Assembly (NCBI GenBank): GCA_932294295.1
Contig: OW028580.1
Span: 24,352,975-24,416,974 of the forward strand
Length of the DNA: 64,000 nt
DNA from: Alitta virens
Lineage: Eukaryota > Annelida > Polychaeta > Phyllodocida > Nereididae
Direction: 5' to 3'
Below the pieces are notes generated by a model. The model was given only the letters and a program-made list of their open reading frames with translations, did no database searches and was not told the DNA's origin. Position numbers and translations under genes: made by a program. Of the stretch, positions 2,730 to 51,600 are shown in pieces; position 1 is the stretch's first letter, and every line of letters starts with the position of its first letter.

Positions 2730-4103
2730 TTATAGTCTGACTTCTTCGCCAAAACTGAATGTCAGTCCCTCCTTTACACAGCGCTTCTTGTACAAATCCT
2801 CAATAATGTGACTTTGTTCTTCATTGAAATGATTCTTCCAATCTCCAACCATTCCCTTACGCATGAATGGTGATATTTCTTGATTAATTGTACTGTACTG
2901 CGAGTAATTCAATGTTGAGACATTTTTCATGTTTTTGAATGCTGTTCGCTGGACTATCTTGGAAACCAACTCATCCGAAATATCTTTATCAAGATGGAAC
3001 GCCACTTGCCGAATAATTTCATATGGTTTGGCCAAGAGGTCTTCATACTTGACGACAAGTACGTTTGGATGATGTCGCAGTTCCCACCAGCTGACCACAT
3101 GGTCAAAGTAACACCCGTAAATTAAACGGTTATTTTGAAATAAGGTGAAGAATTCATCCCACGTGCCTGTGAAAAAATTCAGATTTTCGTTTGCCTTGTA
3201 GAAGTAATATAAGGACACCAGAGTATCTTTGGGATTCCGCATTACCAGGACAAACTTACTTTTCCCTTTATTGAGAGTTTCCATAAAGTACTTTGCCGGC
3301 AGATGCGATTTCAACAAGCGAGGAGGTTGCATTTTCAACACCTTATCCAGAGTTGAGCCTTCTGGTGTTTTCATCTCTACATAGGGAACCCTCTGGGTGA
3401 GGCTAACCTTATCAGATGTTTCAAAATCTCCATTGGTGTGAACCAGATAGACTATCTCTTGCATAACAGTTGTACCTAAAAGAAAAATAGATGACAGTGA
3501 CACATCTGATAGAAAATATAGAATTTTCGGACTGTCATATTCTGTGCACGTGGTATCTGCTTCCTGCCTCAGGCATAGCTCACTAGAGATAAAAATTGCC
3601 CAGGTAACATGTTCCATGGAAAGATGATGATATTAATATGAAAACTATGGCTGGTTACTTTTACCATAGCATCTAAATAGGTATAAGTAAAATAGCCTAC
3701 AAATTGTTCAATTTTTCCCAGTATTTTTGTGGTATTTTCTTTAGCTCTGGGCTAAATATGATAAACCGTATTTCCATGTCAACGGTTAGGACTAGGGGGC
3801 TAACATTTCATCAATGATGTTATTTTACCTTGTACATCAATTCTAAAAAAATATCAATGAGTTTGAGGACACATTCCAGCCCTGGGTCGATTTTCTCAGA
3901 AAATGCCTCTTCATTTGCATTGCATATTTACTGGCTTTTGTCAATATATTTACTTTACCTGTTTTTGGAAAAGTGGCCACTATGACATCGGAGTCATCAA
4001 AAATGGTGTGTTTGATCTTTTCTATGCGTTCAGCTGTAATTGTTCCTAGCAAGGTCATTCCTTCGTAGACATGTTCTCCTCGAATGCAATGACTGGCAGC
4101 CAT
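2730..4103 (-). CDS. Cytosolic-type sulfotransferase (SULT family)
   Basis: Predicted to transfer the sulfuryl group from PAPS to a hydroxyl or amine acceptor in the cytosol; the acceptor cannot be read from sequence. Two exons: 3959-4103 (48 codons plus 1 nt, donor GTAAAG) and 2730-3475 (acceptor TTTTCTTTTAG). Joined they give 296 residues, the usual SULT length. The splice falls within the 5'-phosphosulfate loop, FPKTG then TT. The 3'-phosphate-binding segment (VMRNPKDTLVSLYYF) and the C-terminal signature (RKGMVGDWKNHF) are both present, as is a KxxxPR..KSHLP block. The family's usual W after PKxGTT is V here. The start at 4103 gives a normal SULT N-terminus. The gene looks intact. It is head-to-head with the calmodulin-like gene, 1.7 kb away. 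Confidence 0.93.
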
Positions 4104-17200: not shown

Positions 17201-20200
17201 TATTTTGGAAAGAGGGGGGGGGGGGCTAGTGGTTAAGGTGCTCGCCTTCAAATGAAAAGGTTGTAGGTTCGAGCCCCCACCATGGCATAGAGGAACTGAG
17301 TACATCCTCCGTAACTCTTTGCTCCACTCCACCCAGGTGCCAATGGGTACTAGGCTATAGGCAGTGATGGCAATTGTAAGTGCCTGACCCCTGCAGGTAA
17401 TTCTGTGTAACGGGCTGTATACTCCCCAGGGAGTTGAGAAAGGCTCAAGCTTGAACAGGCCTGCCAAGGGTGTAATTGTAAAGTCGTTTGAATCTGCTTG
17501 GACGGCGATAACTCCCATTTACATTTTACATTTACAAAACTAAGCCACTCCTTTCCTCTCTTTTTTTCTTCTAAAACTCAAAGGGAATTGTCAAATAGCA
17601 ATTCATTTTTAACCCCCCCCCCCCCCTTTTTCACCGTTCTAAGTATGTGTCATTTCACAAGACCGATGACGAGTCAACATGATCGAGAGTCCACACCGTG
17701 GAAAATGGATCGAATCCATGCGTTTGGGATAAAGCGATCCTTCCTTACCATTAGGCCATCCAACTGACAGATTTTTATAGATAAATAGAAGAAAGCAGCT
17801 TGCATAGATAGATGATAGATAGATAGGTAGATAGATAGATAGACATATAGGTAGATAGATAGATAGATATTTAGATATATAGATAGACAGATAGGATAGA
17901 TAGATAGGTAAACAGATAGATAGGTAGGCAGATAGATAGGTAGATAGAGATAGATAGATAGATATATATATATATATATAGATAGATAGATATATAGATA
18001 AGATAGATAGATAGATAGACAGATAGGTAGATAGATAGATATATAGATATTTAGATATATAGATAGGATAGATAGATAGGTTAACAGATAGATAGGTAGG
18101 CAGATAGATAGGTAGATAGAGATAGATAGATAGATAGATATATAGATAGATAGATATATAGATAAGATAGATAGATAGATAGATAGACAGATAGGTAGAT
18201 AGATAGATAGATATTTAGATATATAGATAGACAGATAGGATAGATAGATAGGTAAACAGATAGATAGGCAGATAGATAGGTAGATAGAGATAGATAGATA
18301 TATAGATAGATAGATATATAGATAAGATAGATAGATAGATACTTTTTACTAGCCAAGCAAGCAACCAACCAAAATAATTACTTTAAATAGCATTTTACCG
18401 TTTGATGCACACCTCACATGCATTTAAACAAACCAAAAGAGCATGTAACTTTACATGAATCAACATGATTATAAATGCAAAAACGTGAAGTGACAGCGCG
18501 TGAATGACGGTGCGTCGTGCGGTCACGACGTTGCGCCAACGCCAACGGTCTCTTTGAAGACGTTATTAAAAGATCCAGATCGTGAAAATGGCCTTTAAAA
18601 AATAAGAGAAAGTTTCTATAGGATTCAGGCAGATATAGAGATAGTGGGAGTAATATTGCAGTGATTTATGCGGCAATTTGTTCTGGAAGATGAGTTCGCA
18701 GTTTGCTTAAAAATTTGTGAACAAGTAGGTACCTAATGAGGGAGAATTGTGAAGTCGAAAATGCGTAAAAGGCCAGGTCTTTACCCTTGGGAAGGAAGGA
18801 AGGAAGGAAGGAAGGAAGGAAGGAAGGAAGGAAGGAAGGAAGGAAGGAAGGAAGGAAGGCTACAGTCCAAAACAAACTAGCTTGAACGACCAGTTGTCAG
18901 CGGGTAGTGTCCTTTACTTGCCTCAGCATAGCCACCGAATACACAATGCCTTGATAGCTTGAAATAGAGGTGAAGAAAAAGCAAGAAAGGAAGCAAACAG
19001 AAAGGAAAGAAAGAAACTAACAAAGATATATAAAATGTAAATGTGTCTGGGGGTTTTTTTTTCTCTCTCCAAGATTCATCTTGGATCTTCTTCATACCTA
19101 TTAAGTCATGATAGTAGTTGATTCCATTCCAAAAATTAGGCCTAGATATCTTAACCTTGTACTTAACCCTGGCCTAGGCCTAGGAAAACGTCCATGGTGA
19201 CGTTTTTCGAAAGTTAGCAAAATGTCAATTGATGAAAAGGTGGCTTCGATCCAAGCAAAGTTGGCAGAGGTCTATTGTCGTCTGCATGGCAGCTATTCAA
19301 CCAATCTTTCGCCGCCCCCCAAAAATCCAACTGAAAAACCCCGCAATTTCAATGGGGCCTTTTTCACGTTATTTCCTCTTTTAAACTCCACTTTCTATTT
19401 CTTAAAAAGAATGCTTTGGAGGGGGGTTCTGTTAAACACGGGGCTGGCACACTCCATTGCCCTAGTGGCAAGTCAAGCATAACATTATATTCCGCGAGAG
19501 GGCGCTTCGACATAAAAATAATAGCACGTTGGACCAGGTGAGCAGATCAGTTCTAGCAGGCACCATGAGCGCACGTCAAGGGACATACAGTTTATTGGGC
19601 ACTACATAACAGATAAAAGATATAGATAACATCTTATCTGTTTTAAAGTGTAGATAATACTTCACACAAGTGGCATTTCCTTGTGAACGTGGATAACACA
19701 GACTGATTTTCCCACAGTCAAAACTTTTTCAATTTGAAAGTTGACTTGGATGGATTAAATTCACAATTGAATGGATTTATTGGATTAGCAATTTTACCAT
19801 AACTTTACATAATATCTGAAGAAGAAGAAAAAACCACACATATACATTGGATAATTACCCAACTCAGTACATCAACAACCAAGGATTTTACTGATATACA
19901 TTGAACAATTTTGCTTTTGTTTCTACATAATATTAGAACACACCCTTCACTCAAACTTTGACATAAAGTCAATATTAAGCAAACATTTGCAGAAATCACT
20001 GCAGTTGACTTTCTTCTGACATAGTCGAGTGCTTTGGCACACTTTAGGCACACCCCGTGACGGACACAGCCTTAGAAAATATTTGGATCTTTTTTTCTCT
20101 CTCTCCAAGATTCATCTTGGATCTTCTAATGTCATCTGTGCAGCCACTAAGACCTCTTTTTTATGGTGTGTAATATATTTACCCTTAAAGCCACAATATT

Positions 20201-21034
20201 TTGCAAGAAAACCTGTCATCATCAAGTTTCAGGCTGTAACTACATGGAATGTGTGCAAAATAAATGTAACTAATAATTCAAAGCAGTGAGAAGTATAGCA
20301 AGAACTGCAGGTGCACAAAATCACTGCTCAGCTTGGACATACTCAAATTAATCAAGACTTGTTAGCAGTCATAAATTGTCACACTTCTATAAATCAACAC
20401 CTATTCCTAAAAATATATTTTATATATAAAGTGACTACAGTAGATAGAAGACTTTGGCTGTCAAGAACTAACAAAAAGTCACCTAAAAAAACCACAGCAA
20501 TATATCTTCAAAAAAATTGACATTTAAACTTAATGTGGATATTATCCATACTTCAGGAAGTATAGTTCTTTGACAAGTGGGTGGAAACTTTACTTCCTAG
20601 AAGGTCACGATTTTCGTCATATCTACCAGGTTGTGCATAAGGAAACCTTCGAATTTCCTCATGAAACCACAATAAGAACTCTCAGATTAATTTTCTGCTG
20701 TTATTAAATTACCACAACCCAAAATGGATGGATTTTTACCAGTTGTTCTTCTAGCAGCTTTTGCTGTACTCGTCCAAGCATGGGTACGTATGTGATTTTT
20801 ATGAAGGAAATATTTGCCTTGAAATGTTGAAATAAAGTTTTGTGTTGGTTTTAAAGCACTTTCTATTGATATGAAGGACAACAGAGTATAAAAGTTCGAG
20901 GAAAGATCAATCAATCAATCTGTCAATCAATCTTTCAAGCAATCAAATCAATCTTTCAATTTTTCTATCGATCTATTGATCTATCTTTTTATCTATCTAT
21001 CTATCTATCTATCTATCGATCTGTCTACCTATTG

Positions 21035-21081
<47 letters not shown>

Positions 21082-24000
21082 AATCTATCTGTCTGTCAAT
21101 CAATCAATCTATCAATCTACCTATAAAATCTATCTGTAAAAATCTGTCAATGTTATCTATCCAGGTTCTTACCATACATATCTACTGCTTCAGTAATTGT
21201 CTGTCTGTCTATCAACCACATTTTTGGCTGTCTTTGTTCCTGTATCAGTCTGTCTGTCAATCTGTCTGTAGAAGATAACAAAGCAAGGAGACATGAAGCA
21301 AGCAAGCAACCAAGCAATTGCCTAACCTGCAGCCAGCCAAAATTCAGGGCACCAGCATAATTACATATCAAAAAAAAAAAAGACCAAAAAAAACACCTCC
21401 TCAATCCAATGGGTGGCTCTAGCTGGTACAGCTTCTACTCTACTTAAGCTTGTCAAGTCAAGGAATGTTAACAGTCTATCAGACTCCATCACCTATCAGT
21501 AATCATGGGCAGGAAAAAACTACAGCTTGTCAGTATGTATATTACCAAGGGGTGTTACCCCACCACCAGGTAGTATCAATTCACCTCCGAAATACCCAGG
21601 ATGCTTCTCACAGCATATGGTGCAACAGTAGCTTTGGTAATAAGTATCAGTCTCAAGTGCAGGGGTACACAAAGTTCAAGACCATTATGGAGACACTTGA
21701 GTATGTTCAGTAAGTTTTATGATTATCTTACTTAATGAGATTGTGTAAACGCCAAATTATGACCACTTCAATGGGATATCTGTACTCACTCTCCACTCAG
21801 CTGCTGTGAGCCAATCAAAATGATTCATTGTCATCCAGCATGGGTGTATATTGGATGGCTGCAGTGTATGTTGGATAGCTGCAGTGTAATATGATGGCTG
21901 AAGTGTATGTTGGATGGCTGCAGTGTATGTTGTACAATGAGGAGAATATAAGCAATTGTGGATGCCACTGGATGGTGTGTCAGCCAACAGAATTTTGTGG
22001 GATTCGGATAAATTATCTGTAGAGTTTGATAAATTTTGCTGACTGCAACGTTTCCGAGTACTTCAGTTCAGTTTTGTTCACATATGTACACTGCCGTGTA
22101 TAAGTACAAGAAAATATTAATTAACTGAAACGTACATACATTATAAATTCCAATACAATATTACTTTCCATACTTTAGAGTATCAGGCAAAAGCCACAGT
22201 TCACCTTGCATTTCGCCATTCTTTTACTCTTAGCCGAAACACAGTGCATCAATGTCGATGCACAGAGTAAATGACTGCTGAGGGTTCGCTGCATGCAGTC
22301 TATGTTTAAAAAATAATAATTTAAACTTTATTGCATCATATTATATTCTTGGAGGTGGTAACAGTATCAGAGCACCTGCAACTTAATATCAACACGCCTT
22401 TAGGATGATACTTTTTTTTTTTCATAACATAAAAAAAAATCTATAGAAAAGAAATTGTCAAAAAATTGCATGAAAAATTATTATGACAGCATAAATACAT
22501 CAAAGTAAGGGGCAATCATGTGATGTCATGGGTCAGTGATTTCACCCTATAGTGTAACATTTTATCAGACAATTTAAAAAATAATAATACTGATAATGTC
22601 CACAAAAAAAAAAAAAAACGACGCACCGTCATTCACGCGCTGTCGCTTCAAAAAGTCAAAATTAACATGATTTAATTGTAAATCAAATGAATTTGAATTT
22701 TAAAAAACAAAAGCATGATAAAACACTAGATTAATGCACTACTTTGAAACAGTTACTTTTAAACAAGTTAAAAAAAAAAACAATTTTTGAATGGTAATAA
22801 ATGACCATTTTTTCCACAAAAAGGCAGGTGTTTCTATTCAGAGTGAGTTAGAAAAAAAGTTTAAAATTGTTAAACCAACAAGTTGTTAATTTCACTGCAC
22901 ACAAAATGGCCACAGTAACGGGTTAAAAAGCAGTTACATTTAAAAATGTTGAAATTTAATACCTTAATTAGCTTGTGGTGGTATTTAAAATATATATGTT
23001 CAATTTTAAGTAGTGTGGATTGTTACAATATTGAGTCTCATAAGGATGCAATGCAGTGGAACTTCTTAAAAGACCTCACTATTAAGACCACTTCACTATT
23101 AAGACCACTTCACTATTAAGACCACTTCACTATTAAGACCAGTACAATTTGTACAAAGATCTTACAGCCAATTTCATAGAATCGGAAAAAAGCCTCATAG
23201 ACTTGGAAGCTTAACTGCATGCAGAGGACGTCACGTGAGTCCAGGAATCTTATTGGTTACTGCTTTAGCCAATGGGAGTCCTGGATTCACATGACGTCAT
23301 CTGGAGTTTATCTTCCTAGTATATCGGATTTGTTTCCAACTCTATGAAATTGACTGTAAAAGCGAGGATCAGTGTACATAACCTCACTTCAATGACCACT
23401 TCAATGACCACTTAAATGACCACTTCAATGACCACTTCAATGACCACTTCCTAATTTAGATCATACATTTTAGGTTAACGTATACATCTGTTATTTATTA
23501 TCCTACAAGGTATTTGTCATAAATGTAATTATACATAAATGATTATGGAATATATTATAATGGTTTAGGCAGTTGCCACTTTACACATTAGCCTCGATGA
23601 ATGAAAGTCCTGGGTTCCAACTTCTGTCGAGGCGCTCTTCGTGAGCTACATCTCAGAAGATGTCAATCGCATGAGGTGATAAACTGGAGGTGCTTTGTAC
23701 TCGGTGTCTATGCTGAGGCAAGTAAAAGACCCCATCCATTGGGGTAAATGTGTATAAGTGGTACTTGCCTTAGAGGGCTTCATTTATCCTAATCCCTGCA
23801 TCCAACTCATAATACTAGTATTTATTATGGAATATTATTAGTTTAATGTTGGTTAAAAGCATATTACTGTTTTGTTAGTCATTGTTAATATTTTATTTCA
23901 TGAAAAGGGCGTAGCTACCTTTAAATATTAGCAGCACAGTTTTTTGGAAATGAAATGTCAAGGAACTTTTTCAATAAACACTAAATAAACACATAAATTA

Positions 24001-27000
24001 TATAGATATATTTTTCAATTTAAATGCAAGCATAAAACAGGAAAGCTTTTTAAAGATAAGTATGTACAACAAAAACGAATAGTGCCATACTTTTTCTGGT
24101 ACTTTTTCACCAGACATATTTTGCAAAAAGAAAGTAGTGTATGGTATTTTTAAGACTTAAAAACTCACAAATTGTACACAATTTCCAGCTTAATAACCTT
24201 ACAAAGCCTGACTGGGTCACTTCTTGTCTGGTTTTTCGACATAACAGGAAAAGTTTTTTTTTTTAGAAAAAGTTCAATTTTAACATCTAAATATCACGCA
24301 ATCTTGCTAACCCTGCATAGTTTGGATTTCCAAGTAGCAGCGAGACTGGACTTCATCATGCAATTGGGGTATTTTCACGATTGAAATTTACTGAAATGTG
24401 TTTTCGAAATATTTCATCTGCATGCAATAATTTTGAATTTCTGAAGTTTTATAATAAGTCTGAATTTTAAATTGCTTTTTGCCATGCTTCATTCAATGTT
24501 CTTTGTTCGACTCGAGGCATGACTAAGATGGAGAAATGTTATGTGATAACGTAGGTCTTCTGAACTCACAGCAGATACTCCAATCACCTATAGAAACTTG
24601 AGATAAAACTGTTGTTTACAGACACCTAAGTGCTGATAAAAACGTACACGATCGGGCAAAAGTCATGATGAGATTAAAAATCCCTAGGTGGAGTCAATCA
24701 CCTGCCTCAGCACTGACAAAGAGTACTAGGTACGATCAATATAAATGCACTATGAACTAAATCACATTCAGATACATGTATTACAGAATGAGGCAAGTTA
24801 GTATTATCGAGCTCCTCGAACTTCATGAAAACTAAAATTAATTTTGTTGAGATCTGACAAAATTCAAAACACATGATATCGCTTAGAACAATATTTATTT
24901 ATTTATTGTGGTTTTCAAAAACTTCCCTAATTGGTCCCTGACATTGGCAGACTGAGACTTTCCCAGATTTCCTCAGATTTTCCCAGATTTTCCCAGATTT
25001 CCAGAGTAGCTGGTGTACCATGTACCAGGCAATCAAACAGTTTGTCACTTATAAGTCAAACTTCAAAATTAGTCAATTAGAAACTTTTAGGACTATTTAA
25101 TTCATGATTTAAACTTTAAAATTAGTCAATTAGAACCTATTACAGTAGGCCTACATCTCTCCTTAAGAAGACCTTACAACTCATAAAGCTCCCAATCATC
25201 ATTTATGTGACCTTGAAAACAATTAAAGGTCACGTTGCCATGGCAACTCTTAACACCTTAAGGTCTTTCTCTAATTGTTCGCGTGCTCTGCATGAGTTTT
25301 GTCCTTTTGGCGACAGGGGGCGCTGGGGGCAGTGTCCTGATCATAAAAACAACTTTTTTTTCACCCCACGTGCAAAAAGACAGCTGTTCAGTTGCAGGGC
25401 AATCAAAAATTACCCCACCAGGGCAAAATGCAATTTTTTGCTTCTTCGCGCTGAATGTCATAAATTTAAGCAAGGAAATGTTTTTCTTCAAAATAATTCT
25501 GTTTTTAACACTCCAGTCTAATCAAATGTAATTAATATCAAGAGAAGTGGACCTTATCACACAGACAGACAAAACCTTGCATAAAAAAAACAATACATTT
25601 TTCACCAAAATATTGCACATTTGGCGAGAGCAGAAACTTTTTCAGATCACTTGTAGTTTAAGAACATGCAGACTAAAATCACTATTTCCTGCCTTAAAAC
25701 ATATTATTTAATCTGAATAACGCTGATAAAATAGTCAATTGGAATGATCCTATCCTATCCTACCCCATCCTATTCCATCCCATCCTACCCCATCCCATCC
25801 TATCCTATCCCATTCTATCCCATCCTATCCCATTCCATCCTATCCTATCATCCCATCCTATCCCACCCTATCCTATCCTATCCTATCCTTTGAATAACTA
25901 AGTAACATAGACCATCAGCGTGGATTCCAATTTTTATCATTATTACGTCTGCCTCAAAATTATCTCTCTCTATATATTAGTTATAAATATTTGCTAACTT
26001 CTGGTATCCCCATCTATATTGTAAACCACTCATGAGTTGTTTTGGCAATTAGGATATGATCTACTCCTGGCAAAAACCATCTGCATGCCAGTTGTATGCA
26101 AATGATGTCCAAAACATTACAAGTATAGCCAATGGCGTTCAAGATGAAAGAGATAACCAAGAAAAAAAAGTCTTAAAAAAGTCTAACAAAAACTGAAATT
26201 CATAAATCTTCTACTACTTTAAATGTTATATATTACAAAAACAAAGCTATACAAAAACTAATAAATGACAAAATGAAGGCAAAATGTCATGAATACCAAA
26301 GAAAAGGTAATTATATTTATTTAGTGTTTGGCAAACGAAATATTTAGCTTTGTTACCAGCAGGTGGGCATGGCTAATTAGTTATGCTCTGACAATTACCA
26401 AGGTAAAATGCATTGAATTTCCTTTTCTCCCCTTCTTTTTCATGATTTTATTACTTTTTTTACTTTTTTCTCTGTTTCATTTTGTAAACTGAAAGAAGTT
26501 AACAAGTAAAGTAAATTGGTTCTTTGATCTGCAAAGTGTTAAAAAATCCTTACTTGTGCAATTAAATTTGTTAATTGACATCAAGCAAATTCGTGTTTAG
26601 ATACAGTGCAGTTCAACATAATAATCACAATTATTGAATTTACAAAATAGTAGAAAGTTTCATTCAGTATGAGTTTTTATTTATCCATCCTGGCTTTTCA
26701 ATCATTCCATGTTGATTTTACATGACATTCCTGTAAATTCAGTGACCTAACAATAACTGATATCTAATTACAGGGCATGGCCATAAGTTGTGTAAAATTC
26801 ATAATTAAGTAGCTTGAAACAAGTCATACCTATAATGAAGTAGATAACACTATGCTAATATGGTGGTGGTGATTTGGGCTTTATGTCCTGTATTTCTGTA
26901 CCTGATGGGCTAATTAGGACAGGTAGGGACCATGGCAATGAGACGAAGGATGAAACAGCCTTCCAACATAGGCTCGACCGGGAATTGAACCCGGGACCCA

Positions 27001-27611
27001 GTGGTTGGAAGCCAAGTGCGCTACCACTGAGCTAGGCCCCCACCCCTCTATGCTAATGTGGAATTACAGCTGAGTCGGTTGAGTTTAGATCGAAACATTG
27101 CTGTCATTTGCAAGCACCTACGTCGTAAGGCAGTTTGTCAGACTAGGTTGAGTTGACAAGAAGGTGTCTCCAGCCAGGTATGGCTTGGTTCGACTTGTTA
27201 TAGCTTGAGGTGGTCGTTCCTAGCTCTGGATAGCTACAGTACAACATTCTATATATAAGTAATCTTGTATATATTTCTGTCACATTTGAGATAACCACAA
27301 AAATATACCCGTACCCTTTTCCTCTGTAGGGAACTCCCTTCAACATCAAATCAAGATCATCACCTAGAAATCATACCCCACCTCACCCTAACATTTACCC
27401 CCCCCCCCCCCTTTTCTTCTTCTGCTGAACAGGTATTCTCATCCCACCACTTAAAAGTAATCTTCACCAAAGACATGAGAGAGAAAAAACACAAGTTGTT
27501 GACAAGTAACACACAACCAGAACACATGGTGTTATGCCAAACACAGAACCCCCACAAGGTGCAACTGTCAAGATAGTACCTTACAAATTGCTCACATAAC
27601 TTGGGTTATCC

Positions 27612-27662
<51 letters not shown>

Positions 27663-30600
27663 CATCTATCTATCCATCCATCCATCCATTCATCCATCTA
27701 TCAATCTATCTAACTATGAAATTTGAAGCATCTACCAAATGATAAGGTCATTTCATTATCAATCAATCAATCAATAAATCAACCTGTCTATCTGTCTGTC
27801 AGTCGATCAGTCAGTTTTTGATAGTCATTCATTTTTTTATACTTCATAATCCACAGTTTTGACAGTGAAGTACTGATACTTTACAAGTACATATACTCAT
27901 CAAAAACTAGAAAACCTTATTTTTGAAAAAAAAAACAACATTGAAGCAATTGTCCATTACTTAGTATTGGGTAAATTCGACAGTTCTTGGGTGTTTTCTA
28001 CACAACATTCCACAACGATTTTGTCTATTTATCTTCACATATTCATCTGACTTGAAATTCTGTCTTTGGCACTTAGGTTTTTTTTTTATCTCACATTTCA
28101 AGAACTATACCTCTGATATATCTAGTTGTGCTTAACAGTATTTGTCATAAATTTCTCCCAACCTAACTCTTCTGCAAGCAATGCGTTTGCCTTGGTTTAC
28201 AAAATGTCAAATAGGAAACTTCAGCTCAAGCCAAACAGTTGGGCAGGTAAAAACAAACACATGTGGACCATATGCCACGGACACCCCTCCCAATGCATTG
28301 CCAAGGTGCAGACTGATTGATAGACAGATAGGGTGGGTAGGATGATGTAATACTGCCCCAGACAGATAGGCAGATGGACAGATGGCTAGACAGGGTTGCT
28401 AGATAGATAGATGGGCATATTGATTGATGCTACATCTATAGACAAGAGTGAATATATTTTATATATAACGGTTGTATATGAATTCAAGTGCGATTAGTTA
28501 TAATGGACACCAAATATCATCTCATCATAACGTCTGCCGCTGATAGTTTGATAGATAAGCCAAGCTTCAGACTGTACCACTGATATATGTCTATCTATAG
28601 CTATCTACCTATCTACCTACCTATCTACTTATCTATCTGACTATCTATCTATTTTCAAAAAGACTTCAGACTATCTAAATTCTACCTGAATTCAAAACTA
28701 TTCAAAGGCAGAACATACACTCAAAAACCAGGTCCACATTGAATAAGTTAACAAAAATCTCAGTTCTTTCACTATATGGAAGGCTTTTTTGCACCCGTGG
28801 AGCTATAGAGTCGACTTGTAGTTCTTTTGAAGTGCTCGCCTTTCATTTACCCCATAGCCAGGGGGTCTATATAAAAGGGTGTTTCACGGGGTTGTTGGAT
28901 CCCTTTGGCACTTTTTGCCAGGTACAGAATTTGAAATTGTCCTGTTCTGAATTCAAAGGTACTATTGAAGGGTAGAGTCACCATTGAGTGCAATCCCACA
29001 TTCAAGAACTCACTCGAGAATAGAGACTGACAAGGGGTCTTAATAATGAGTCTATCTATCTATCCCTGTCTATCTATCTATATATCTATCTGTCTGTCTA
29101 TCTCTCCATCCATCCATCCATCTATCTATCTATCTATCTGTGTTTCTATCTATCTATCTGTGTTTCTATCTATCTATCTGTGTTTCTATCTGTGTATCTA
29201 TCTATCTATCTAGTCAAACCAGGTACAACAATGAATAATATCATTGTTGAATAAGCTGCTCAATGAAAAAAATCGAAAAACCTGTCTTTATTCAATTCTC
29301 ACCTTTAGACTCAAACAATTGCCCTATTCTTGTCTAAGAGAGGAAAACCAGTTTTTTAAGTTTTTAAAATTCAATTAGATTTGCACTTTAACACTTCAGG
29401 ATCTTGTATTTCGAGCTTGAACAATAATTGCATTTTAGCAGCAATAAAATAAAGTTCTATGACATGAAATAAGCATATAAAAAAAATCTATGAACTCACA
29501 ATGGAACTATTTATCCAAATGTAAACACTATATTCACAATACATGAAAATGAATATTTCTCTCAAGGTCAGAAAAATATTTCTAAAAAATCAATAAAATT
29601 CAGTTTTTTTCCTTATAAATATATAGACAAATAGTAAAATATTTGAAAAAAGAAAGAAAGAGGAAATTTGAGGGTAAAGCCTTTACATACACTATATTAC
29701 ACACTAAACAAATTTTACAATGCAGTAGCCCTGTCAACCGTGTATAATATATACTAGAACTTACTACAAAACATTTTCTGGGATTTTTTTTCACCCCTCT
29801 TTACAATTTTTTTCTTGCTAGGGGCCCAACATGTCAGCTCCTTCTTTGCAACCCTTAGTTATTCGCGAAACCACGTCTAGAATCTCGAGGGGGCGAGAAA
29901 AAACGAGAACTTACTACTATTTAGTTGACGTAAAATGTAAAGGATGGAATGTCATCCAAAAACTCGTGTATTGAAGTAAGAAAAGTAAGAATGTATAAAG
30001 TGATAAAAATGAGATAAATATGTTGAAACTTTGAAGTAGGTTTATGCTTACAATATAAGAACAAGTCATACAATCTGAATTAATACTATATCTAAACAAA
30101 TTACTGTATTTACAACTATTCAAGGCTTCAATATATTAAAAATAATAAAATATAAATATATATATATATAAAAGACTTCATTTATGATCATAAGTGGGAT
30201 TATTTCAAGTACAAGAAAATTATGAATTCCAATATCGCTTAAACAAGTACATTGGAAATTTTTCGATCATTCCAAATGCCTATATTTAAATTTCATATAT
30301 ATACACTTACATTAAAAAAGTTACACATGATATCTTTAAACTGAGTTATTAATTTCGATCTCTAAGTTTTCAAAATTATTCCATTTCATTTTATCACCCC
30401 CCACCCCCCCCCCCCCCCCCCACCTGGGCCTCATCTAATCCCACTTTATCAATGACCCTCATGAGTAGAAAAATCTTCCTTCAGAGAGCTGCACTCATCC
30501 TATCATATTCTGTCCCCTAATACTCTGGTTTACTCTCAATATACGCAGCTCTTACAAACAGTATGTACCCCCCAAAAAATCCTCGTAACCATGGTGATAA

Positions 30601-33600
30601 ATTTATGCCTCATTCATCCTCACAGGTGCAAAAGATACTGCAAATATGTGGCAAATCCCCCAGCACCTTCTCACCCGATATTTTTTTTAACATTTCATAT
30701 CCTACATACCACTAAGGTTATAGCCGCAAACTTGTAAGCTCTGTGCGCTACTGTTATTTATCATACACTACAAAGATATGTATCTGTATGTACTTGGTGT
30801 GCCAGTGTTTAGACTTATTCAAGGTCATGTTTAAGCAATTGCTTTTGGAGTATACTGTGGTATAGTCTCAGTACTATTAATCTGGGTCGATTAAATCTTG
30901 ATGCTACATGGCCAAATGTGCCACGTGCGTTTTCCATGAGAAGAATAAACGCATGGAAAACGCATGGTTTTTAGCTAATTGTAATGAGGCAAAAACCATG
31001 CCTTTTCCATGCGTTTATCCAAACACATGGAAAACGCACGTGGCACAATTGGCCATGTTATGAGTTGATAGCAGATGTAACGATAAGTGGCTTGGAGTCC
31101 ACACCATCTATATTTACATCTTTGGGAGGGGCTTATTTTTTACCACTGGTGGCATAATTGGACAATACCAGATATTCACTTTGTCAGTTTCATAAACCTA
31201 TATTAAAACTGTGTAACATAATGTGGACTCCAAGCCTTATCATCTCATCATAGCATATGCCTCTGGCAGCTAGCTTATGAAAGAACGATAGATAGGTAGA
31301 TAGGTAGTAGATAGGTATATAGACATATAGATAGGTAGTAGATAGATAGATAGATAGATAGATACTTAGATCGATAGATAGATAGATAGATAGATAGATC
31401 ATCAATATCATAAGATAGTTCACAACATTACCTTCCCAAAATTACTCAACCTTATTCCGCAATGTTATTCCAATGTTATTTTAATGTTATTTTAATGTAA
31501 TTTCAAAGCTATTCGAATTTATTACCTTTATATCATTCAGTTTATTCAATAACATTCCTGCATAGTCCAGGACCCTGCTGAGGCCATCTGGACTATACTG
31601 TATATTGGCAGATGTGCTATTATGTGGGAGAAATATTCTATCTTCGTAGAGGGTTGAAAAAGAACCACAAGAAGCCAAGCATTGTAAAGCCACAGAAAAC
31701 GTGATAGCATTCTAAGAGTATGAATAAGATGGTATTTTCTAGTAAAGCTACGAATTATTAATGTCAGACATATTTTAGTGATTTCTGGTAATGCTATTAT
31801 TAAGATACTTATAATATAAATTAGTGTTACAGTAGAAACTAGTTTTAAGACAACCACGTTATTAAGATCATATAAATATAGAAAGGTCAGAGTTCAGGAT
31901 ATATATTAATTTTCACCATTATTTTCACCATTTTAGAAAACCTCAGAATTAAGACCACCTCATTATTAGTAATAAAAATCCTGGGTTATTGAATTTGTGC
32001 ATTACCTATAAATGGAATTTCGCTTGTATATTATTCACAGAAGTAATGATGAGATGATACTGCTGGATTCAGAATGACAAATAGAGTCAATGTGCAATAC
32101 CAACTAAGGCAGGGATCTTTCACCTGCCTCGGCATGGACGCTGTATGTTATTAGACACTTGTAAGCCGTCGCTATTTCTAAGTACAGTACTGCTAAATTA
32201 CCTTAACAGATCTTTGATCGTATCATGAACAACTTTGGGTGGTACTGGTGGGTGGGTGTTTTATAGACCGAAATATCGCTGTCATTTTCAAGAGCCCCTC
32301 GTCGTGAGACAGTTTGTCAGACTAGGTGGATTAGGGCTTTCCGTCCTGTATTTCTGCACCTGATGGGCTAATTAGGACAGGCAGGGACCACGGCAGTGAG
32401 ATGATGGATGAAACAGCCATCCAACTTAGGCTCAGCCGGGTCCCAGTGGTTGGAAGCCCAGCGCGCTACCACTGAGCTAGACCCAACCCCCTATAGTGAA
32501 CAACTAAATAACAAAATATGTTTCAGTGAGCAATCAAAACACATTACACCCAAAAAAATATATAAACACCCAACAAAGAAAAAAATATATATCATGAGAG
32601 AAAAATTGACAAAAACATGTCAATTCTCACTATAAATAACATTAGTTAGTATACAAGTGTCGCAAAATGGCTCTTTTGCGTCACTCTTGACATGTACAAT
32701 TTACGACATGGCATGCTTTGCGGCAATGGGGGTGCAGAAATTCTGAAGGCAGGTCATGTGAAAGGGGTCTCATTAAAACACCATGCATGTCACTCCATGC
32801 AATGCTATATACCCCTTATGTGTGGCTTTCATGTGTAGTAGCATGGTGTACCCCTTTTATGTGTGTTATGGGTTACGTGTTATGAGAGGAAGTTTTGGAC
32901 ATGTTTGGGTTGAAAATGAAAAGGTGTCAAAAACAGGAAATGGTTGCGTAAGAATTGGGATAGGTTATGAATTGCTCAAGATACCAAGAATAACAAGACA
33001 AGATATTGCATGGTTAGATATAAATAGATCATGAAAAATAATTTGAATGCATGGCATATTACATGGAGTTCGAGCTTAAATTAATTGGTGAGAATAAAAG
33101 AATAACCAATAGCAAACAGGGGGGGGGGGGGGGAATTAGCAAAAATAATATGTTGATTTGAATATTTTTTTAAAGTGCAATAGCTAATTGTAACTGATAG
33201 GTATTGCAGATGAAAGAATAATCCAATTAATTTCTAACCTAAAACAAAACTTACATACCTAACTAAAAAATACCACTGCATTTGAACCATATAGTACTTT
33301 TTTCCAATCATATTTCTATCTCAACAAAATAAAAGGTATTACCTATAATACCTTGAAGTACCACAAAATTAACATCTCCAGCAAAATACACCAATTAAAA
33401 TATATATATATATGTTCTCTACATTGTCAGGCAGAGAACAGACCATACAGAAAACTTCAGTAAAACATAGGTTAGGTTTTCTTGCCCATTCAAAAATTTC
33501 TCTATCAGACCATTGAGCCATTATAAGTATTATCATTATCTGACCAGCAATTATAATGGCAGGTAGTTTGATCCAATCTTGAACCCCTGATCTATGACCT

Positions 33601-36600
33601 CTATCAATTTACCCTCAAGCCACTATGCCACCCTGAACACTTCCAAGTCTCTCTCTAAATCAACAAGATAAAAAAAAAATCCCATTCCAGGTTAACAAGA
33701 TTTTGTGTTCTTTCGAGCATTGCTAAAGAGAAGCACTGATTTCCTGCACCAAAGTTATCTTTTCTTAAATCTCAAAAGATAAATTACTGAAAGTTGAAAC
33801 TATCTCTTTTAGGGTGCTTAGGAAATTTTTGAAATTTGAAAGCAAGGAAGAGAGGGTAAAAAGTAAGAAGAAAAAAAGGATATGTAATAACGAAAAAATA
33901 CAAAATAAAATAAAAAGCTGCTCAATTGTATAATTCCTTGGAATATAAATGGTAAATGTTCATATAATTTTACAAATCTGCCAGAAATCAGAAGACATTA
34001 TCCATTTTAATATTTGATAATATTAATGGCCCACATTTAATATTTAGCTAACTTTTCAACAACTGCAGTTGGACATAAATTATAGTTTTGAATTGTATAT
34101 TTAAAAAAAAAAACACGATTTATCATTTTGAGCGAACCACTCTTTTTGCCAATCTTTTACTACTACCTGTACTATCTATTGAATTGCCTATTGAGAACAG
34201 CCATTCATTGGACAGGCATTCTCTACTGGATTGTCAAAAATGACAGTTTGAGGGAAAAGGGATTATTAGGAATATAAAAGGGCCACTCAACTATGCGGAT
34301 CTATAGCATGAAAGCATTCTCTACAGCTGAATAGGTTCACCTGTTGCATGGGGGGAAATGCTGAGCAGTGTTTTCTAGGAATGGGGGACTTCAATGCAGC
34401 TGTAATGTGTATATTGTTAATTGCTGTGTTCAATGTAAACCCCTACATTAGGGCATTTTCATTATTAGGAATACCTCACTATTAAGACCAGTATTAAAAA
34501 TATCATGTATAACATAACTCTACACTAAGACCACCTCGTTATAATTAAATAAAAACCATGGGGTTTCCATGCGTTTATCCTTCTCATGGAAAACGCACGT
34601 GGCACATTTGGCCATGTATGAATATTATATTACAGTCCACAGGGTATGGTGAAGGTCTACATTCAAATACATTTTACTCTCAAAACTATTTTTTACCAAA
34701 GACAGAAATGTCAGCCCACATGCATTCCTTCGGTACAAAGGTATGTCTTCATTGCATGTGATTGCTGAAGCATTTTACTCGACTTCTTGAATGTGTGTGG
34801 GAGACAGTTTGATTTCTTGACCTACAACTAGCTGGGTAGATTCAATGTGCAATTTGGAAGCTCAGAAAAATCAGTTGGTGCTTCGATATTTGCTCTGGAA
34901 TTATGCTGGCCTAAATTCTTCAAAGAGGATCAGCTTCAAGTTTCCAATGAGATTACCTTCGGATTATCGAGATATAACGATTGATCTTGATTTCAGCTAA
35001 TATTTTCACACGATTTAGTGGTAGGTGGGTGGTTTAATAGTGAGGTAAAATACCTAGCAACAGCACAAATGAGTCCAGAAACTAATGATGAGGTGGTCTT
35101 AACAGTGAGGTGATCTCAATAGTGAGATATTCATAGTCTTAAATAGTGAGGTAGTCCTTAATAGTGACGTCATCTTAATAATAGAGACGTCATCTTAATA
35201 GTGACGTCATCTTAATAGTGAAGTCATCTTAATAGTGACGTCATCTTAATAGTGATCTCATTAATGAGGTGGTTTAAAGAACAGGCTCCATTTTATTAGC
35301 AAATCCCATACACTAGTTCACCATTAAGACACCAAATGAAAGTTTTTATAATAAATAAACCCACAGGAAATAGGTAATATAGATAAATAGGACAAGAGTG
35401 AGACTTTAACATGCTCTTTGTGAAAGTGAAGTGGGTTGCAATTTCAACCACAAATTATATCCTGTGGTTCACATATATATCTTTTTTCTTATCTCTCTAT
35501 CCTTTTTCTACATTTTTTTGACAGCTAAACCATACCTAACCCACTTACACTATGTACACACTACACACACATACTCATGAATGGCATAATTGTATCCATG
35601 GCAACTCAGAGGGGCTCACACATTTCAATTAGGGTGGTAGTCTCAAGAATACTGGCAGTTCCCTGCAACCTAGCTGAGTTTTAGGATTAAATTCATGAAA
35701 GGATTATTTGAACAGGGCATTATTTCACCCCTACCTTCGTGGTCACCCTCAAGAAGAGGGTATTAAAGGAGGGTAACAGCTCAGTTAGAACCCTCACATT
35801 CATACCCCAAGCCCTAGTCTCATATTACCAGGGGGTGAGATATCTGTAATATAGGAAGGTCTCATAGTGCCTTTCTCAGTACATCGACTTTTGAATGGAT
35901 CCTTTTGTTGAAGTTGACCATTAAATGTTATGGTCTAGTGGTCTATTGTATGCTTAAGCAGAAGAGCATATGCAATATTGAGTAACAACGTGAAGTTACT
36001 GCATAACTTTAACCCCCTTTTAAGTTGCAACAAAAAGGTTTTGAATAAAGAGGACAGTATATTCTCATCATTTCCAAAGAAAAAGGCACATACTTGCTAT
36101 ATTCTTCTTTGTATACGAATTTTCTATTTTTTCCACTTGGATAAAAGGAAGGTGAATTATATCATTTAATTGTGATGACGTTCATCAAGTAACTTTTAAA
36201 ATATGTTAAAAAAGCTTTAGGTTATCATCAAATCAAATTAGATCCAAGTTTTCATTACACATGGTGTGGACTCCACATCACTTGATATATTCTCACACCA
36301 AATGGTCACATCAAGCCTAAAATATTTTAATTCATTTAAATTGCTTAGCTACTCAGTTACTTCTTACATACTTCTGTATACATACATTCAAGATTTTCCC
36401 CCAGAAATCAGTTAGGTCAATACACAAAGGACCTAATGCTCTCCTTATGCAGACCCATGACCTTCTTATGACACCAAGGCCACAGGAGTCACACAGAGCA
36501 AACAACAGGTTCTGGTGCATTTTATTAAGCACAGACAATGCATTCAGGAGCAGCATTGAGATCACCAACATTACAAACAGTTGCCATGAGATATGTTGAG

Positions 36601-45600: not shown

Positions 45601-48600
45601 CATTCTAAATGTAACAGCACTTAAATATAAATGACTTCTCAGCCATAGCAATTTCCTCTCACTGACAATCTTATCTTTTGGACATTATCGACTTTTTTTG
45701 ACTTATAGCATTAAAATCACCAAGCATATCAATGTTGTACTTAATATAGCTTACACTGATATCCCATATAAGGTCAATTTCAAGATAGAATCTTATTTTT
45801 CTTAAGTGTTCCTAAGGACACCCACGTGGTCTCCAGTTTCACCACGTGACTTTATTTAGCCACCCCTGGTAACTTTTTGACCACCCTTGGACACCTCTTC
45901 AGTGACCATGGGACACCTGAGGAGTGACCATTAAAAATGTCAACACCCATTAGTACTTTGTTAATACGCCAGGTGGCCTCATGGTGCTTTTTGAGTGTCT
46001 CCATGGTGATAAGAAAAAAGAAGTTTAACAAAGAGTTCTACACCACAATAGATAACACTTTTTGATGGGTAATTTTAAGTTAAAAGGAGAAGTGAGCATT
46101 ATATTGATGGCATTTTGCCATCTGCTTACTACTTAAAGGAAGATGACCAACTTAATAAAACTTAAGTAAGTTCATGTAGCAGAAAATATTCTCAATTTCC
46201 AATGTTAAGGCAGTAGACAACTTGTAAATTTCAAAATCCAGCAGCTGAATTAAGCATGTACACTGCAAAGTTACATGTAGTGCAAGTCTGCATATCTCAC
46301 CAACACAGTGGAAAGTAAAAAAAAAAAAAGAATATCGCCAAAACATTTTTTCTGCAATGTTGTTAAGAAATGCCTTTTTTACACACTCACAGCATAGAAA
46401 GGGTGCCTCTCTACCTCCCAAAGGATTTTTTTTATTATTAACTTTTTCATGAGGTCCCCATCCATACCTTCCTTTATTTATTTATTTTTTTCACTTCATT
46501 GTGTAACTTTTTATGACATTTTGGGGTGCCCAGCACATAATCAACAGAGCATTCCTATTTACCTTTCAAAAACCCCAATGGGGGGTACCTGACCTTCTTA
46601 TATGAGGTCCTAAATGTGCTCCAGGGGGAACAAGGTCATGCTGTGTTATTGCTCCATGAGTCCATAGAGAACAGAATGACCTTTTGAAGCTTCAGATGAC
46701 ACAAAAGAACTGACGCGAGGGCATTTTGTAAGTTCGAGGACCTCTTCATGTCGTCGTGGCGTCCGGCCTCCTGGTGGGCCCTCACAAAACTAACTGACGC
46801 TGTTTGTCTCCTCGATTGTCGAGAAATTGCAAAAACGGACATTAACGACATCAATTTTTCTCTCAGAACTGTTAAAACTGCCTACTCATTGTACTTTTAG
46901 TGGTTTTGCCCAGAGGTCATTTTGAAGAACCCTACCAGGGCTGCAACCCACTTAAGTCTAATTGTTGTCCAACCCAGGATGCAGCCCACTTGAGATCATT
47001 TCATACCTGTCAAAATTTGTCAATTTGGGTGACAACAAATTCCAATGACCTGTTACTGTAATAGCCAATTTTAGGAAGGGTGGTCCAAATACCCCTAATA
47101 CAATTTGTAGTAGTCAAAACTGCACCATTAGGCAACAATTGGACCATTTGGTAACAGTTGAAGACACTACATGAATCATTCATGCATGCAAGGACACAGG
47201 ATGCACAATAATAGACTTTTAACAGCTATTATGAAAACACTAATAACATTGCATGACATATGATGGTCCCAAAATATATTTCTTTCATATCGACAAGTAA
47301 GAACTGCTCGTAAATTTCACCGACTTCCTGTGATTTTCTAGTAAATGTTAATTTCCATACTTCACAAAAATAAAGTTGCACTTTTTGTGAAGCATTTCCT
47401 TCAAGGAGCCACTAAATAATCATAAGCGTTTTGCCCAATTCAAAGTTTGATGGATCTGCTGTCACCGTCAATGAATCGCGATTTATAATGAGAGTATTTT
47501 TGGTCATATGATATGGACTATCTTCATGTTTATATAAATATTAGAAAATACCTGAGATGGTTTTTATGTTGGATTCAACAAATATACAGAGCTCAATTTT
47601 AACATTACTAACACAGTGTATTGTAGTGATGGAACTAATTTAAAAGTGACAAAAGCCATAAAAAGAAACTCCATATTTTCTTGCAAAAATTTTTTAGCAC
47701 ATTTTTGAGATACACTTGATAAAACAAAATGACTAAACATCTCATGAAATTCATGCACACACATAAAACTTGAAACTCTATAGGCTTACATAACAATTTT
47801 TGGCATCATTCAAACCATCAGTTTGTAATGAACAACATTTTCAATCACATCTGAAACTGATGATGATTCTTAGATATTTAGATTTGATTTTGACTGACTC
47901 CAGTTCTGGTATTCATATCACATTAAAATAATTCATTTCTTCTTTTCAGACTCAGTTTGTCCACCATTAACACCAGATGGAGCCAGAAGACCTCGGTTAC
48001 AACCACTAGATAACGTCATAAACGTCAACCATGATCCAAACAAGCCTGGTGCAATCATTGTCGCTCGACACAACATTCAACCGGTGTTCCACGAAGAAGG
48101 CCGAACGCCAAAACGTCCAAAGACAGAACACCGGTTTCGTCACCAAAAGCGACAAAAAGATGTCATCTGGACGATGCAGTAGTTTCTGCAATAGTTCATA
48201 TCATACCCACAAGATGTCAGGACAGATCACTACCTAATTTATGAAATATCCACAAGGTGTCAGGATGAACTGATCTTTTGAAACAAGTGGCGCCAAATTT
48301 AAAACTGGCAGAACAGTACATGAAACATTATTTGTTTGATAAAATACAAGCATGTCAACTATAAACATTTCACATTTATGCCTCAACAAGTGTTTGGTGT
48401 TTGATCATATTTGATCAAGACAGAAGATGTTTAAAAGAAATTTGATGGGGCGAAATAAGACAATGAAGACATTCTGCATCAAATGCATTAGTAGATAGAA
48501 GTTGCTACTCAGTGAATAAAATACTAAAATACAGGTTCGCTGCGAAGTAAAAATCTTCACTGAATGGTCAGACCGTCAACCAGTCAATATGTCTAACAAA

Positions 48601-51600
48601 AACACTGGTACTTTTCGATGTCTCACAGTACTATAAATAAATGCATATAATATTGAAGCAGTTGGAATAACTGAACAGTGAATTAATGCATGAACATGGT
48701 TTTATCTAGTGCAACCTCAAGCATGGAAGTTGACATTTCTTTTATAATTAAACGGCTTTGTAACATTTGCAAATAGGCACAGCGAAAATCATCAAAAAGG
48801 CATGCGAGCGGCACAAGGTTTGCTTGTAAATTTTTGCATTAAATATGATTGCATGATATGCTAATGATGTAATACTTGCCATTAAGCAATCCTAGTGCTA
48901 AAGCATGGTCAATTATTAAGCTGATCTTATCGAATATTGAGTGATTGAAAGTGGACCTTTTTGTAACAAATCGGATGAGACAAAAAAAATGCTGTGATCA
49001 GAGATAATCCGAAATTGTACTCTTGCAAAAAATTCATAGGAGCTAACCAATAAATCTGTTCTGATACATGTAATCAGTTTCATGTGATAAGCTTAAATTA
49101 GAAACAAGAAAAAAAACTAAACCATCCTGGCCATTTTTTCCCATTTTTTTTTAACTATTCACTAGTAAATGTATCCTTGAACAGAGTCCCTTTTACATTC
49201 ATGCTACCTGCATTTTCAACATATACCCCATAAAAAACTAGTTTTATACCGTAAGACATTGCTTTTTTAATGCTTTTTTTGCACACGTGTAGATATTGTA
49301 AGTTTTCAGTGTTTTTTTTTATTAGATTCCCACCGTTGTTTGTAATCATATTGTAACTTCGAGATTAGATTTTACGACATGTTCGTGTGTAAGTCATTCG
49401 CGTTCAAATTATCTGTTCCTTGATGATTTATTAAATTTGATCTGTAAGTATTAAAATTCGAATCTAGTCTTCCATTTTTGTATGATTTTTTCATTGTATG
49501 ATTATGTGTAAAAATTATGTGATTTTTATCCGATGTAAATCTATTGTTGTTTGTATTTCTGTATTTTTTTTTCTATAATTTATGACAATGTACATTTTTG
49601 AAACGGCATAATACGAGTTGACAAAAGATTTAGTTTTGATTCTGCTTATTTTTGTAGAATATATATTGTATAGATTTTTGCTACTTGTAAGCTTTATACA
49701 TTAGTACAGGACTGTTTGAAATAAAAATGATAATTTGCAAAATAATTTTGGTTTATTTTTGTGCTACTGAGGAAATGTGCCAAATGCATTCCATAAGTCA
49801 AAAGGATGCTAAACAAGAGGTAGATCAGTAACTGACCCTCAGCAATACCATCTCATCATTACTTTTGCCTGTAGCACCCAAAATATTATGAATGGGACCG
49901 ACTGTATATCATAAATGTTAGGGTTGTCATGGATATCAATTTTTCATTCGATATTGATATCAGTATTCCACTTTTGATATTGCAATATCGCAAATCGCGC
50001 AAATTTTGTATAATCAACATTTGCAGTTATAAATGGAACCACTAGTCACAGGAATATAATTCCCCAAGTCATTGTGAAACCATTCACCTTTAATGTGATC
50101 ACTACTAAGCCAATTTGTTGGGCAATCAGTTTGCAATTTGGGGTGGGGGCTGTGTAGGCAAGTGCTCATTATGGCACAAATGTACAATTATAGAGGATAA
50201 ACAAAGAATCGAAACATGAATTTTTTCGATATCAATATATTGTTGATTTATCAATTTACAGCATATTGATGACAACCCTCATAAATGTCAATATCTCAAT
50301 GCTCCAGGTTCTGAAACTTAGTCAGCTTATATAACCTGCTGCCAGAGGCAGATGTAATGATGAGATGATAAGGCTCAGAGTCCACACCATGTCACACATT
50401 TACCCCATGGGTGGTGTCTTTTACTTGCCTTAGCATAGGCACTGAGTACAAGGCACCTCCAATATAACGTCTAAAGTGATCGACGTCCCAACTAAGATGT
50501 AGCTCCTGAAGAGTGCCCGGGCCAAGGATCAAACCCGGGACCTTCATAGTCCAGTAGAAGCATAGGTGAACGGTAACATGGAGCTTGGCAGCTATTTTTT
50601 GGTTGATATTAGGTAATTTGATGGTGCTGATTCCAAATCTGACGGGTGCCAGTTTGGCATCCTTGAGCATTTTTAGATATTCACAAAAACAGTTGCCATG
50701 GTAACAAAAAATTGAATTTTCAATATTCAACAGAAAATGTGAATTAGCAAGATTGTTATAATCCATAGCTACAACTAATGTTATAAAATCAGAGCTTGCC
50801 AATGTGAAATGACAGATGTCTTTACCATAGCCACCAAGCTGTCCTGAAAAAGCTCAAAATTATCTAAGCAATAAAAAACGAATTTGTGAATCCCATTCTA
50901 ATATTAAATACAGAATCCTAAAAACTTTCACATTAGGTAACACACTTCTACTTGTTAAGTGGTGCAGTTCAAGGTCAGTTCAAGGAAACGGGTTTCTAAA
51001 TTCTTAAATGGAGCAGACCAGGCCCTCCTTTACATACATGTATGGTTTCTATTGACCTACCAACCTCACCCTTCCTTACACAGGAAAAAAAAAACACTAA
51101 AAAATCATAATTTATTTTAAATAACCAACACACCTGTACTATCTAGTTCTAAGTAGATAATTTATTGCCCTCGGTTACTTATTGGAAGGCAGCTGAGATA
51201 AATTCTTGGTTTTCAAAATATGAACCAGGTGTTCACCTTTCCTCGCTACCACATCTGCTATAAATGCTCAGAGGAGTTTAAAAAAAGTTTCTTTTCCCAA
51301 ATTTAATTATGATTTATTTGTTTTTGACCAGACATGACACAGCTGATTGAGAGCTGAAATTTTAAACTTCAAGCCAGGTGAGAATGATGCCAATTAAGGA
51401 ACATTTACAATGAACCAAAAGAAGTCTTGCCGTTTCCTAAAAAAAATATAATAAATTTTTAAAAAATCCTCAGATAGGAAGTTTTGTATTGAAGCACTAC
51501 TAATGGCTTAGTTACAATAGGATTCTTGATAACAAATAAATTGGCGAATAGCGCCTGTTTCAGAAATTATTTCTGCTCATTTGCACTTGCATTAAAGAAG

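What the first reader, a model, noticed from the sequence alone, without database searches (positions are those of the whole stretch)
20724..48182. Secreted Tae4-like protein encoded by an intron-bearing animal gene
The 171-codon exon 36823-37336 carries the ordered Tae4 motifs (GGNV, LRLSxALN, YIYR, GRRGI, GHVALWD), yet the gene has a eukaryotic signal-peptide exon and spliceosomal introns. Tae4 is a bacterial type VI secretion effector, and transfer of tae genes to animals (dae genes) is established. The motif match is seen; the transfer origin follows from the family's known distribution; the three-exon model is inference from phases.
Basis: partly seen in the sequence, partly recalled or inferred. 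Interest (0 to 1): 0.92.

Follow-up and report, generated by a model that had tools for sequence, protein, structure and literature searches.

The report
Secreted animal Tae4 without its cysteine
An animal genome, probably a worm's, carries an intact gene for a secreted protein built like a bacterial weapon that cuts rival cell walls, but it lacks the cysteine that does the cutting, so it more likely binds bacterial walls than breaks them.

The parts
20724..20783 (+). Exon 1: start codon and hydrophobic leader (20 codons), phase 0 donor gtacgt
   Evidence: P0002 residues 1-20, 85% identical, E 2e-5
20784..36822 (+). Intron 1 (16.0 kb), holds tetranucleotide arrays
   Evidence: gt..ag ends; arrays
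36823..37336 (+). Exon 2: Tae4 domain, model residues 21-191 plus first base of codon 192
   Evidence: structure of relative P0002
36955..36957 (+). Codon 65 (GCA, Ala) where bacterial Tae4 has catalytic Cys44
37243..37245 (+). Codon 161 (CAT, His), counterpart of catalytic His126
37261..37263 (+). Codon 167 (TGC, Cys), counterpart of bacterial Cys135; Cys in 167 of 167 animal-like rows
37264..37266 (+). Codon 168 (GAT, Asp), counterpart of bacterial Asp137; Asp in 80 of 166 animal-like rows
37337..47949 (+). Intron 2 (10.6 kb), phase 1; relatives suggest the same place and phase
   Evidence: gt..ag ends
47950..48182 (+). Exon 3: DSVC start and basic tail, 77 aa with the split codon, stop TAG at 48180-48182
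   Evidence: (P0002, E 3e-37)
47958..47960 (+). Codon 195 (TGT, Cys), proposed disulfide partner of Cys167
   Evidence: 75 of 75 rows with D at residue 192 have DxxC

Best explanation
This is an intact, secreted animal gene of a lophotrochozoan family derived from the bacterial type VI amidase effector Tae4. The family kept the Tae4 fold and many conserved positions near the old active site but replaced the nucleophilic cysteine (Ala here, Ser in the named molluscs), so it should be unable to cut peptidoglycan by the Tae4 mechanism. I think it most likely works as a secreted binding protein: the old cleft grips peptidoglycan stem peptides without cutting them, a Cys167-Cys195 disulfide ties the exon-3 tail to the fold, and the basic tail adds affinity for bacterial surfaces or host polyanions. 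It would mark or sense bacteria, as non-catalytic peptidoglycan recognition proteins (PGRPs; recalled) do. Shown: gene structure, family, fold of a close relative, missing nucleophile, two conserved cysteines, mostly basic tails. Inferred: bacterial donor, lack of activity, secretion, the disulfide, peptidoglycan binding, immune role.
For: Tae4 by Pfam (94 of 96 relatives), by profile comparison (probability 97.7) and by structure. No Cys at the nucleophile place in 159 animal-like rows, Cys in 13 of 13 bacterial rows. In S. Typhimurium Tae4, Cys44Ala abolished toxicity (PMC3695027, passages). 15 positions at 95% or more in animal-like rows keep a residue held by at least 80% of bacterial rows, with Arg68, Ser70, Asn74, His161, Trp165. 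Hydrophobic leader in 68 of 70 rows tested. Two conserved cysteines. Tails net positive in 71 of 75.
Against: No assay. His kept in 160 of 166 rows and Asp present in the window itself, which some activity by another nucleophile would also explain. The Tae4 domain is itself positive (median +6), so a basic tail (median +8) is not very special. Cleft geometry, cleft conservation on the surface and the Cys-Cys distance were not measured (no coordinates). Peptidoglycan binding and expression were not tested; 'spliced' rows are judged from one residue, not from DNA.
Confidence: 0.5

Rival explanations
1. Non-catalytic Tae4 fold with a role unrelated to peptidoglycan: a secreted ligand, enzyme inhibitor or matrix protein that uses the fold as a scaffold, perhaps with a peptide released from the basic tail.
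For: Nucleophile missing. The tail is added by the animal lineage and carries a recurring basic pattern in 37 of 73 tails of 25 or more residues against a shuffled mean of 5.4, pattern chosen after looking. Several positions invariant in bacteria have changed near the site.
Against: Residues after the old nucleophile and the His are kept, which a pure scaffold need not keep.
Confidence: 0.3
2. Active domesticated amidase in the sense of tick Dae2: secreted and cutting bacterial peptidoglycan with another nucleophile (Ser where present, Cys167, or a bound metal).
For: His in 160 of 166 rows; Asp at the Asp137 place in the window. Tick Dae2 is an antimicrobial peptidoglycan cutter (PMC9779611, passages).
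Against: The window has Ala, with no reactive group, at the nucleophile place; so do 47 of 159 rows. Cys44Ala abolished toxicity in the Salmonella protein. Asp is not kept in the family (80 of 166). Tick Dae2 keeps Cys and His in all tick forms. Four rows have Arg for His, the bryozoan among them.
Confidence: 0.13
3. Bacterial contamination, or a dead gene copy.
For: The missing catalytic residue; no transcript of this species seen.
Against: Introns of 16.0 and 10.6 kb with good sites and phases; a full-length relative of the same length, 87% identical; the same loss across the family.
Confidence: 0.02

Closest known systems
Bacterial Tae4 (type VI amidase effector 4, PF14113; structures 4hff, 4jur, 4hfl, 6ijf, 4bi3)
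   Same: Sequence family, fold (model of relative P0002), His126 and Cys135 counterparts, Asp137 counterpart in the window.
   Different: Nucleophile Cys44 replaced by Ala; Cys139 counterpart missing; leader, introns and basic tail added; an insert after the LN motif and a shortened loop.
Domesticated amidase effectors, tick Dae2 (from Tae2)
   Same: Animal gene of a Tae type, leader, likely bacterial origin; tick Dae2 also carries a disulfide absent from the bacterial protein (PMC9779611, passages).
   Different: From another Tae family (Tae2). Tick Dae2 keeps catalytic Cys and His in all tick forms; the rows seen here lack the Cys.
Non-catalytic peptidoglycan recognition proteins (PGRPs), recalled, no call
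   Same: Proposed way of working: an amidase fold without catalysis that binds peptidoglycan.
   Different: Different fold and family; the window exon matches only Tae4 in Pfam.
Phage-type lysozyme genes in bivalves (PMC5303276; one passage and the abstract opening seen)
   Same: A cell-wall enzyme gene taken up by molluscs, with introns gained.
   Different: Another enzyme family; reported from two bivalve subclasses, while the present family has named rows in four phyla (phyla recalled).

Membership tests
Tae4 (PF14113) | Sequence match above the curated cut-off | tested here: met
   42 bits against 27, E 1.2e-10; 94 of 96 relatives match at E 0.001 or better
Tae4 (PF14113) | Tae4 fold | tested here: met
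Tae4 (PF14113) | Catalytic Cys-His-Asp | tested here: not met
   Ala in place of Cys; His and Asp present in the window. The other known Asp place, two after His (PMC6277958, passages), is Ala in the window.
Tae4 (PF14113) | Partner immunity protein Tai4 and type VI secretion | not tested
   No search for Tai4-like genes was made in the window; a bacterial example shows the pair
Domesticated amidase effector (dae) | Tae-type gene in a eukaryotic chromosome with introns | tested here: met
Domesticated amidase effector (dae) | Secretion signal | tested here: inconclusive
   Hydrophobic leader by inspection and by a simple hydropathy rule in 68 of 70 relatives; no signal-peptide predictor was at hand
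Domesticated amidase effector (dae) | Origin by transfer from bacteria | tested here: inconclusive
   Animal rows form one clade against five bacterial rows, 100/100, on a long branch; nesting inside bacteria could not be tested
Domesticated amidase effector (dae) | Active antibacterial amidase | not testable with these tools
   The missing Cys argues against
Peptidoglycan recognition proteins (PGRP) | PGRP / amidase-2 type domain | tested here: not met
   Only Tae4 matched at E up to 1 in Pfam
Peptidoglycan recognition proteins (PGRP) | Binds peptidoglycan | not testable with these tools
   Inferred from the kept cleft positions only

The most novel reading that the evidence does not exclude
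A single ancient capture of a type VI cell-wall amidase lost its catalytic cysteine before molluscs, annelids, brachiopods and bryozoans parted, and has been kept since as a secreted, disulfide-locked peptidoglycan-recognition protein with a basic tail: a second, independent invention of the PGRP principle, made from an interbacterial toxin.
Probability: 0.38. Interest if true: 0.85.

Novelty: new variant of a known kind. Interest (0 to 1): 0.7.

Why it matters
Dae genes are discussed as captured toxins still used as toxins (Chou et al. 2015, recalled; tick Dae2). A family kept across several animal phyla with the cutting residue gone would show a captured weapon turned into a sensor or binder, and would point to an uncharacterised secreted protein in oysters, mussels, snails, octopus and worms. 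It makes a direct test possible: does the protein bind peptidoglycan without cutting it?

Tried and rejected
Contamination and pseudogene: rejected on introns and the full-length relative. A nucleophile shifted by one place (Ser66): not general, Ala in 124 of 159 animal-like rows. Extra Tae4 exons in the window: tblastn of 44 proteins gave only weak hits outside the three exons (best E 0.010). Prokaryote and viral contig scans confirmed no relatives, which says little for an animal gene. NCBIfam had no hit for the exon, nor for 12 bacterial Tae4, so its silence says nothing. A first count of spliced tails used a pattern that also caught another motif (23 rows); replaced by the alignment column (75 rows). 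Folds absent are not taken as excluded. Seven other ORFs of the window gave no Pfam match above its cut-off.

Rows left out: P0098 (partial Raoultella piece) from every count; from the tree, rows filling under 75% of the domain and unnamed or bacterial rows 72% or more identical to a kept one, leaving 77. Limits: the word filter and length limits, and the 153 unlisted hits, mean that Cys-bearing animal relatives may exist unseen.

Literature: ten searches ran over a held open-access library. Searches found no paper, 24 listed all 11 (none relevant), 105 both of 2. Only part was listed (20 of 91; 20 of 1,117; 20 of 87; 20 of 31; 30 of 4,267; 10 of 339). No listed title was on Tae4 in molluscs or annelids; most listed papers were not opened. 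Chou et al. 2015 (Nature, dae genes) is not held, so whether it lists these genes, with or without the Cys, is unknown here.

Full report
What is there. The 171-codon stretch 36823-37336 is open and holds the quoted motifs. It scores as Tae4 in Pfam (E 1.2e-10) and, alone, reaches solved Tae4 structures by sequence (E 3.2e-4 to 6.6e-3). Exon 1 (20724-20783) supplies a start and a hydrophobic leader, exon 3 (47950-48182) the tail; donors and acceptors are gt/ag with matching phases 0 and 1. A search with the joined model found 43 proteins among 432 candidates. The best, P0002, has 268 residues like the model, is 87% identical over its full length and comes from a 1,869-base contig, too short to hold introns of this size, so probably a transcript. 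Its pieces fall on the three exons.

The family. Profile searches gave 93 hits and 273 hits, of which the best 120 were listed. I call 'animal-like' all listed hits outside the bacterial Tae4 rows, plus the window exon: 168 rows. Most carry no species name. The named ones are 34 mollusc rows (bivalves, gastropods, a chiton, an octopus, an argonaut), two annelids (Paralvinella, Capitella), one brachiopod (Lingula) and one bryozoan (Bugula); the placing of genera in phyla is mine, from no call. 94 of the 96 rows of alignment A3 match Pfam Tae4.

The tree. In a tree of 77 rows with the trait column removed, the 72 animal-like rows form one clade against five bacterial rows (100/100). Rows of named molluscs and kin form one clade of 35 (100/100), and these with Lingula, Bugula and four unnamed rows one of 41 (99/92). 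The window sits in a six-row clade (97/88) of unnamed kin. Its identity to the two annelids is 60 and 65%, to Lingula and Pecten 41 and 45%, so it is probably an annelid; this is not proven. Many inner branches among the annelid-like rows are weak and the bootstrap had not settled.

The missing cysteine. Salmonella Tae4 uses Cys44, His126 and Asp137; changing any of the three to Ala abolished its effect on growth (PMC3695027, passages). The E. coli Tae4 fetched here has the same numbering. Alignments made in five ways put this place on Cys44 inside an ungapped block. Over the 168 animal-like rows the column holds Ser 106, Ala 47, Thr 3, Asp 1, Gly 1, Lys 1, gap 9: no Cys in 159. All 13 bacterial rows have Cys. 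Told against a simple 'dead site': His is kept in 160 of 166 rows (Arg 4, Phe 1, Tyr 1), and the Asp equivalent in 80 of 166, the window included. In the tree, the 41-row mollusc-brachiopod-bryozoan clade has Ser in 40 and Thr in one; the other 31 animal-like rows have Ala 25, Ser 4, Lys 1, Asp 1. The order of the changes is not resolved.

What could hide. One search listed 120 of 273 hits. The listed ones run from Cys-less animal-like rows straight to bacterial rows with Cys; animal rows with Cys could stand among the 153 not listed, or be missed by the word filter. 'Family-wide' here means the rows seen.

The tail and the second cysteine. In E. cloacae Tae4 Cys135 pairs with Cys139. In the animal-like rows the first is kept (167 of 167); the place of the second is Phe in 87% by MAFFT and a gap by profile comparison. 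A new Cys stands three residues after the codon split by intron 2: all 75 rows with Asp at residue 192, which I read as spliced, have DxxC (74 DSxC). The 89 rows with Gly there read as running on into a donor (exon base g plus gt), so intron place and phase look old; this rests on residues, not on their DNA. Of the 75, 37 have just two Cys from residue 21 on, 34 three and 4 four. Tails have a median of 64 residues and net charge +8; 71 of 75 are positive, but the domain is positive too (median +6). A pattern [hydrophobic or His][RK]Hx[KRH] occurs in 37 of 73 tails of 25 or more residues against a shuffled mean of 5.4 (maximum 11 in 300 shuffles); I chose it after looking.

How it may work. Fifteen positions held by at least 95% of animal-like rows keep a residue held by at least 80% of bacterial rows, among them Arg68, Ser70, Asn74, His161, Trp165 and Trp188. 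In bacterial Tae4 the conserved surface clusters round the active-site crevice, thought to set specificity for the peptidoglycan acceptor stem (PMC3695027, passages). Keeping such positions while discarding the nucleophile fits binding without cutting. That is an inference. A role unrelated to peptidoglycan is a serious rival, an amidase with another nucleophile a weaker one.

Relation to what is known. That Tae genes passed to eukaryotes is established (Chou et al. 2015, seen only in papers that cite it). Tick Dae2 keeps catalytic Cys and His in all tick forms (PMC9779611, passages). The Tae4 papers seen describe Cys-His-Asp as conserved in the family (PMC6277958, passages). A Cys-less animal family from Tae4 is a different outcome. 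Ten literature searches (see Tried and rejected) listed nothing on it, but six lists were partial and the key paper is not held; I therefore claim a new variant of a known kind with that reserve.

Noticed in passing
window 2730-3632 (-): A 300-codon open frame matches the sulfotransferase domain PF00685 (E 1.8e-61); probably a host gene or exon.
   Followed up: partly
window 44744-44916, 50307-50479, 57492-57632: A dispersed repeat of 140-173 bases, three copies 84-86% alike, one inverted; looks like a mobile element. The open frame 50392-50853 overlaps one copy.
   Followed up: no
window 26978-27034 (-): A weak, partial tRNA match just over the Rfam cut-off (30.4 against 29 bits); may be a tRNA-derived short repeat.
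   Followed up: no
window 7791-8033, 17804-18341, 41517-41715: Tandem arrays with units of 73, 4 and 5 bases.
   Followed up: no
P0102 and P0146 (Pinctada), with P0144, P0139, P0161, P0140: Pinctada has two rows in separate mollusc clades; the second clade (99/95) holds other bivalve rows, so bivalves may carry a second copy.
   Followed up: no
P0165 (Bugula), P0081, P0089, P0166: Arg replaces the catalytic His as well as Ser the Cys; these rows group together with one more and Lingula (92/60).
   Followed up: partly
P0027, P0032, P0033, P0038, P0041, P0046, P0072, P0074: An unnamed clade (100/100) with other small residues round the lost nucleophile (GAAAVR, HTAAVR and the like); source animals unknown.
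   Followed up: no
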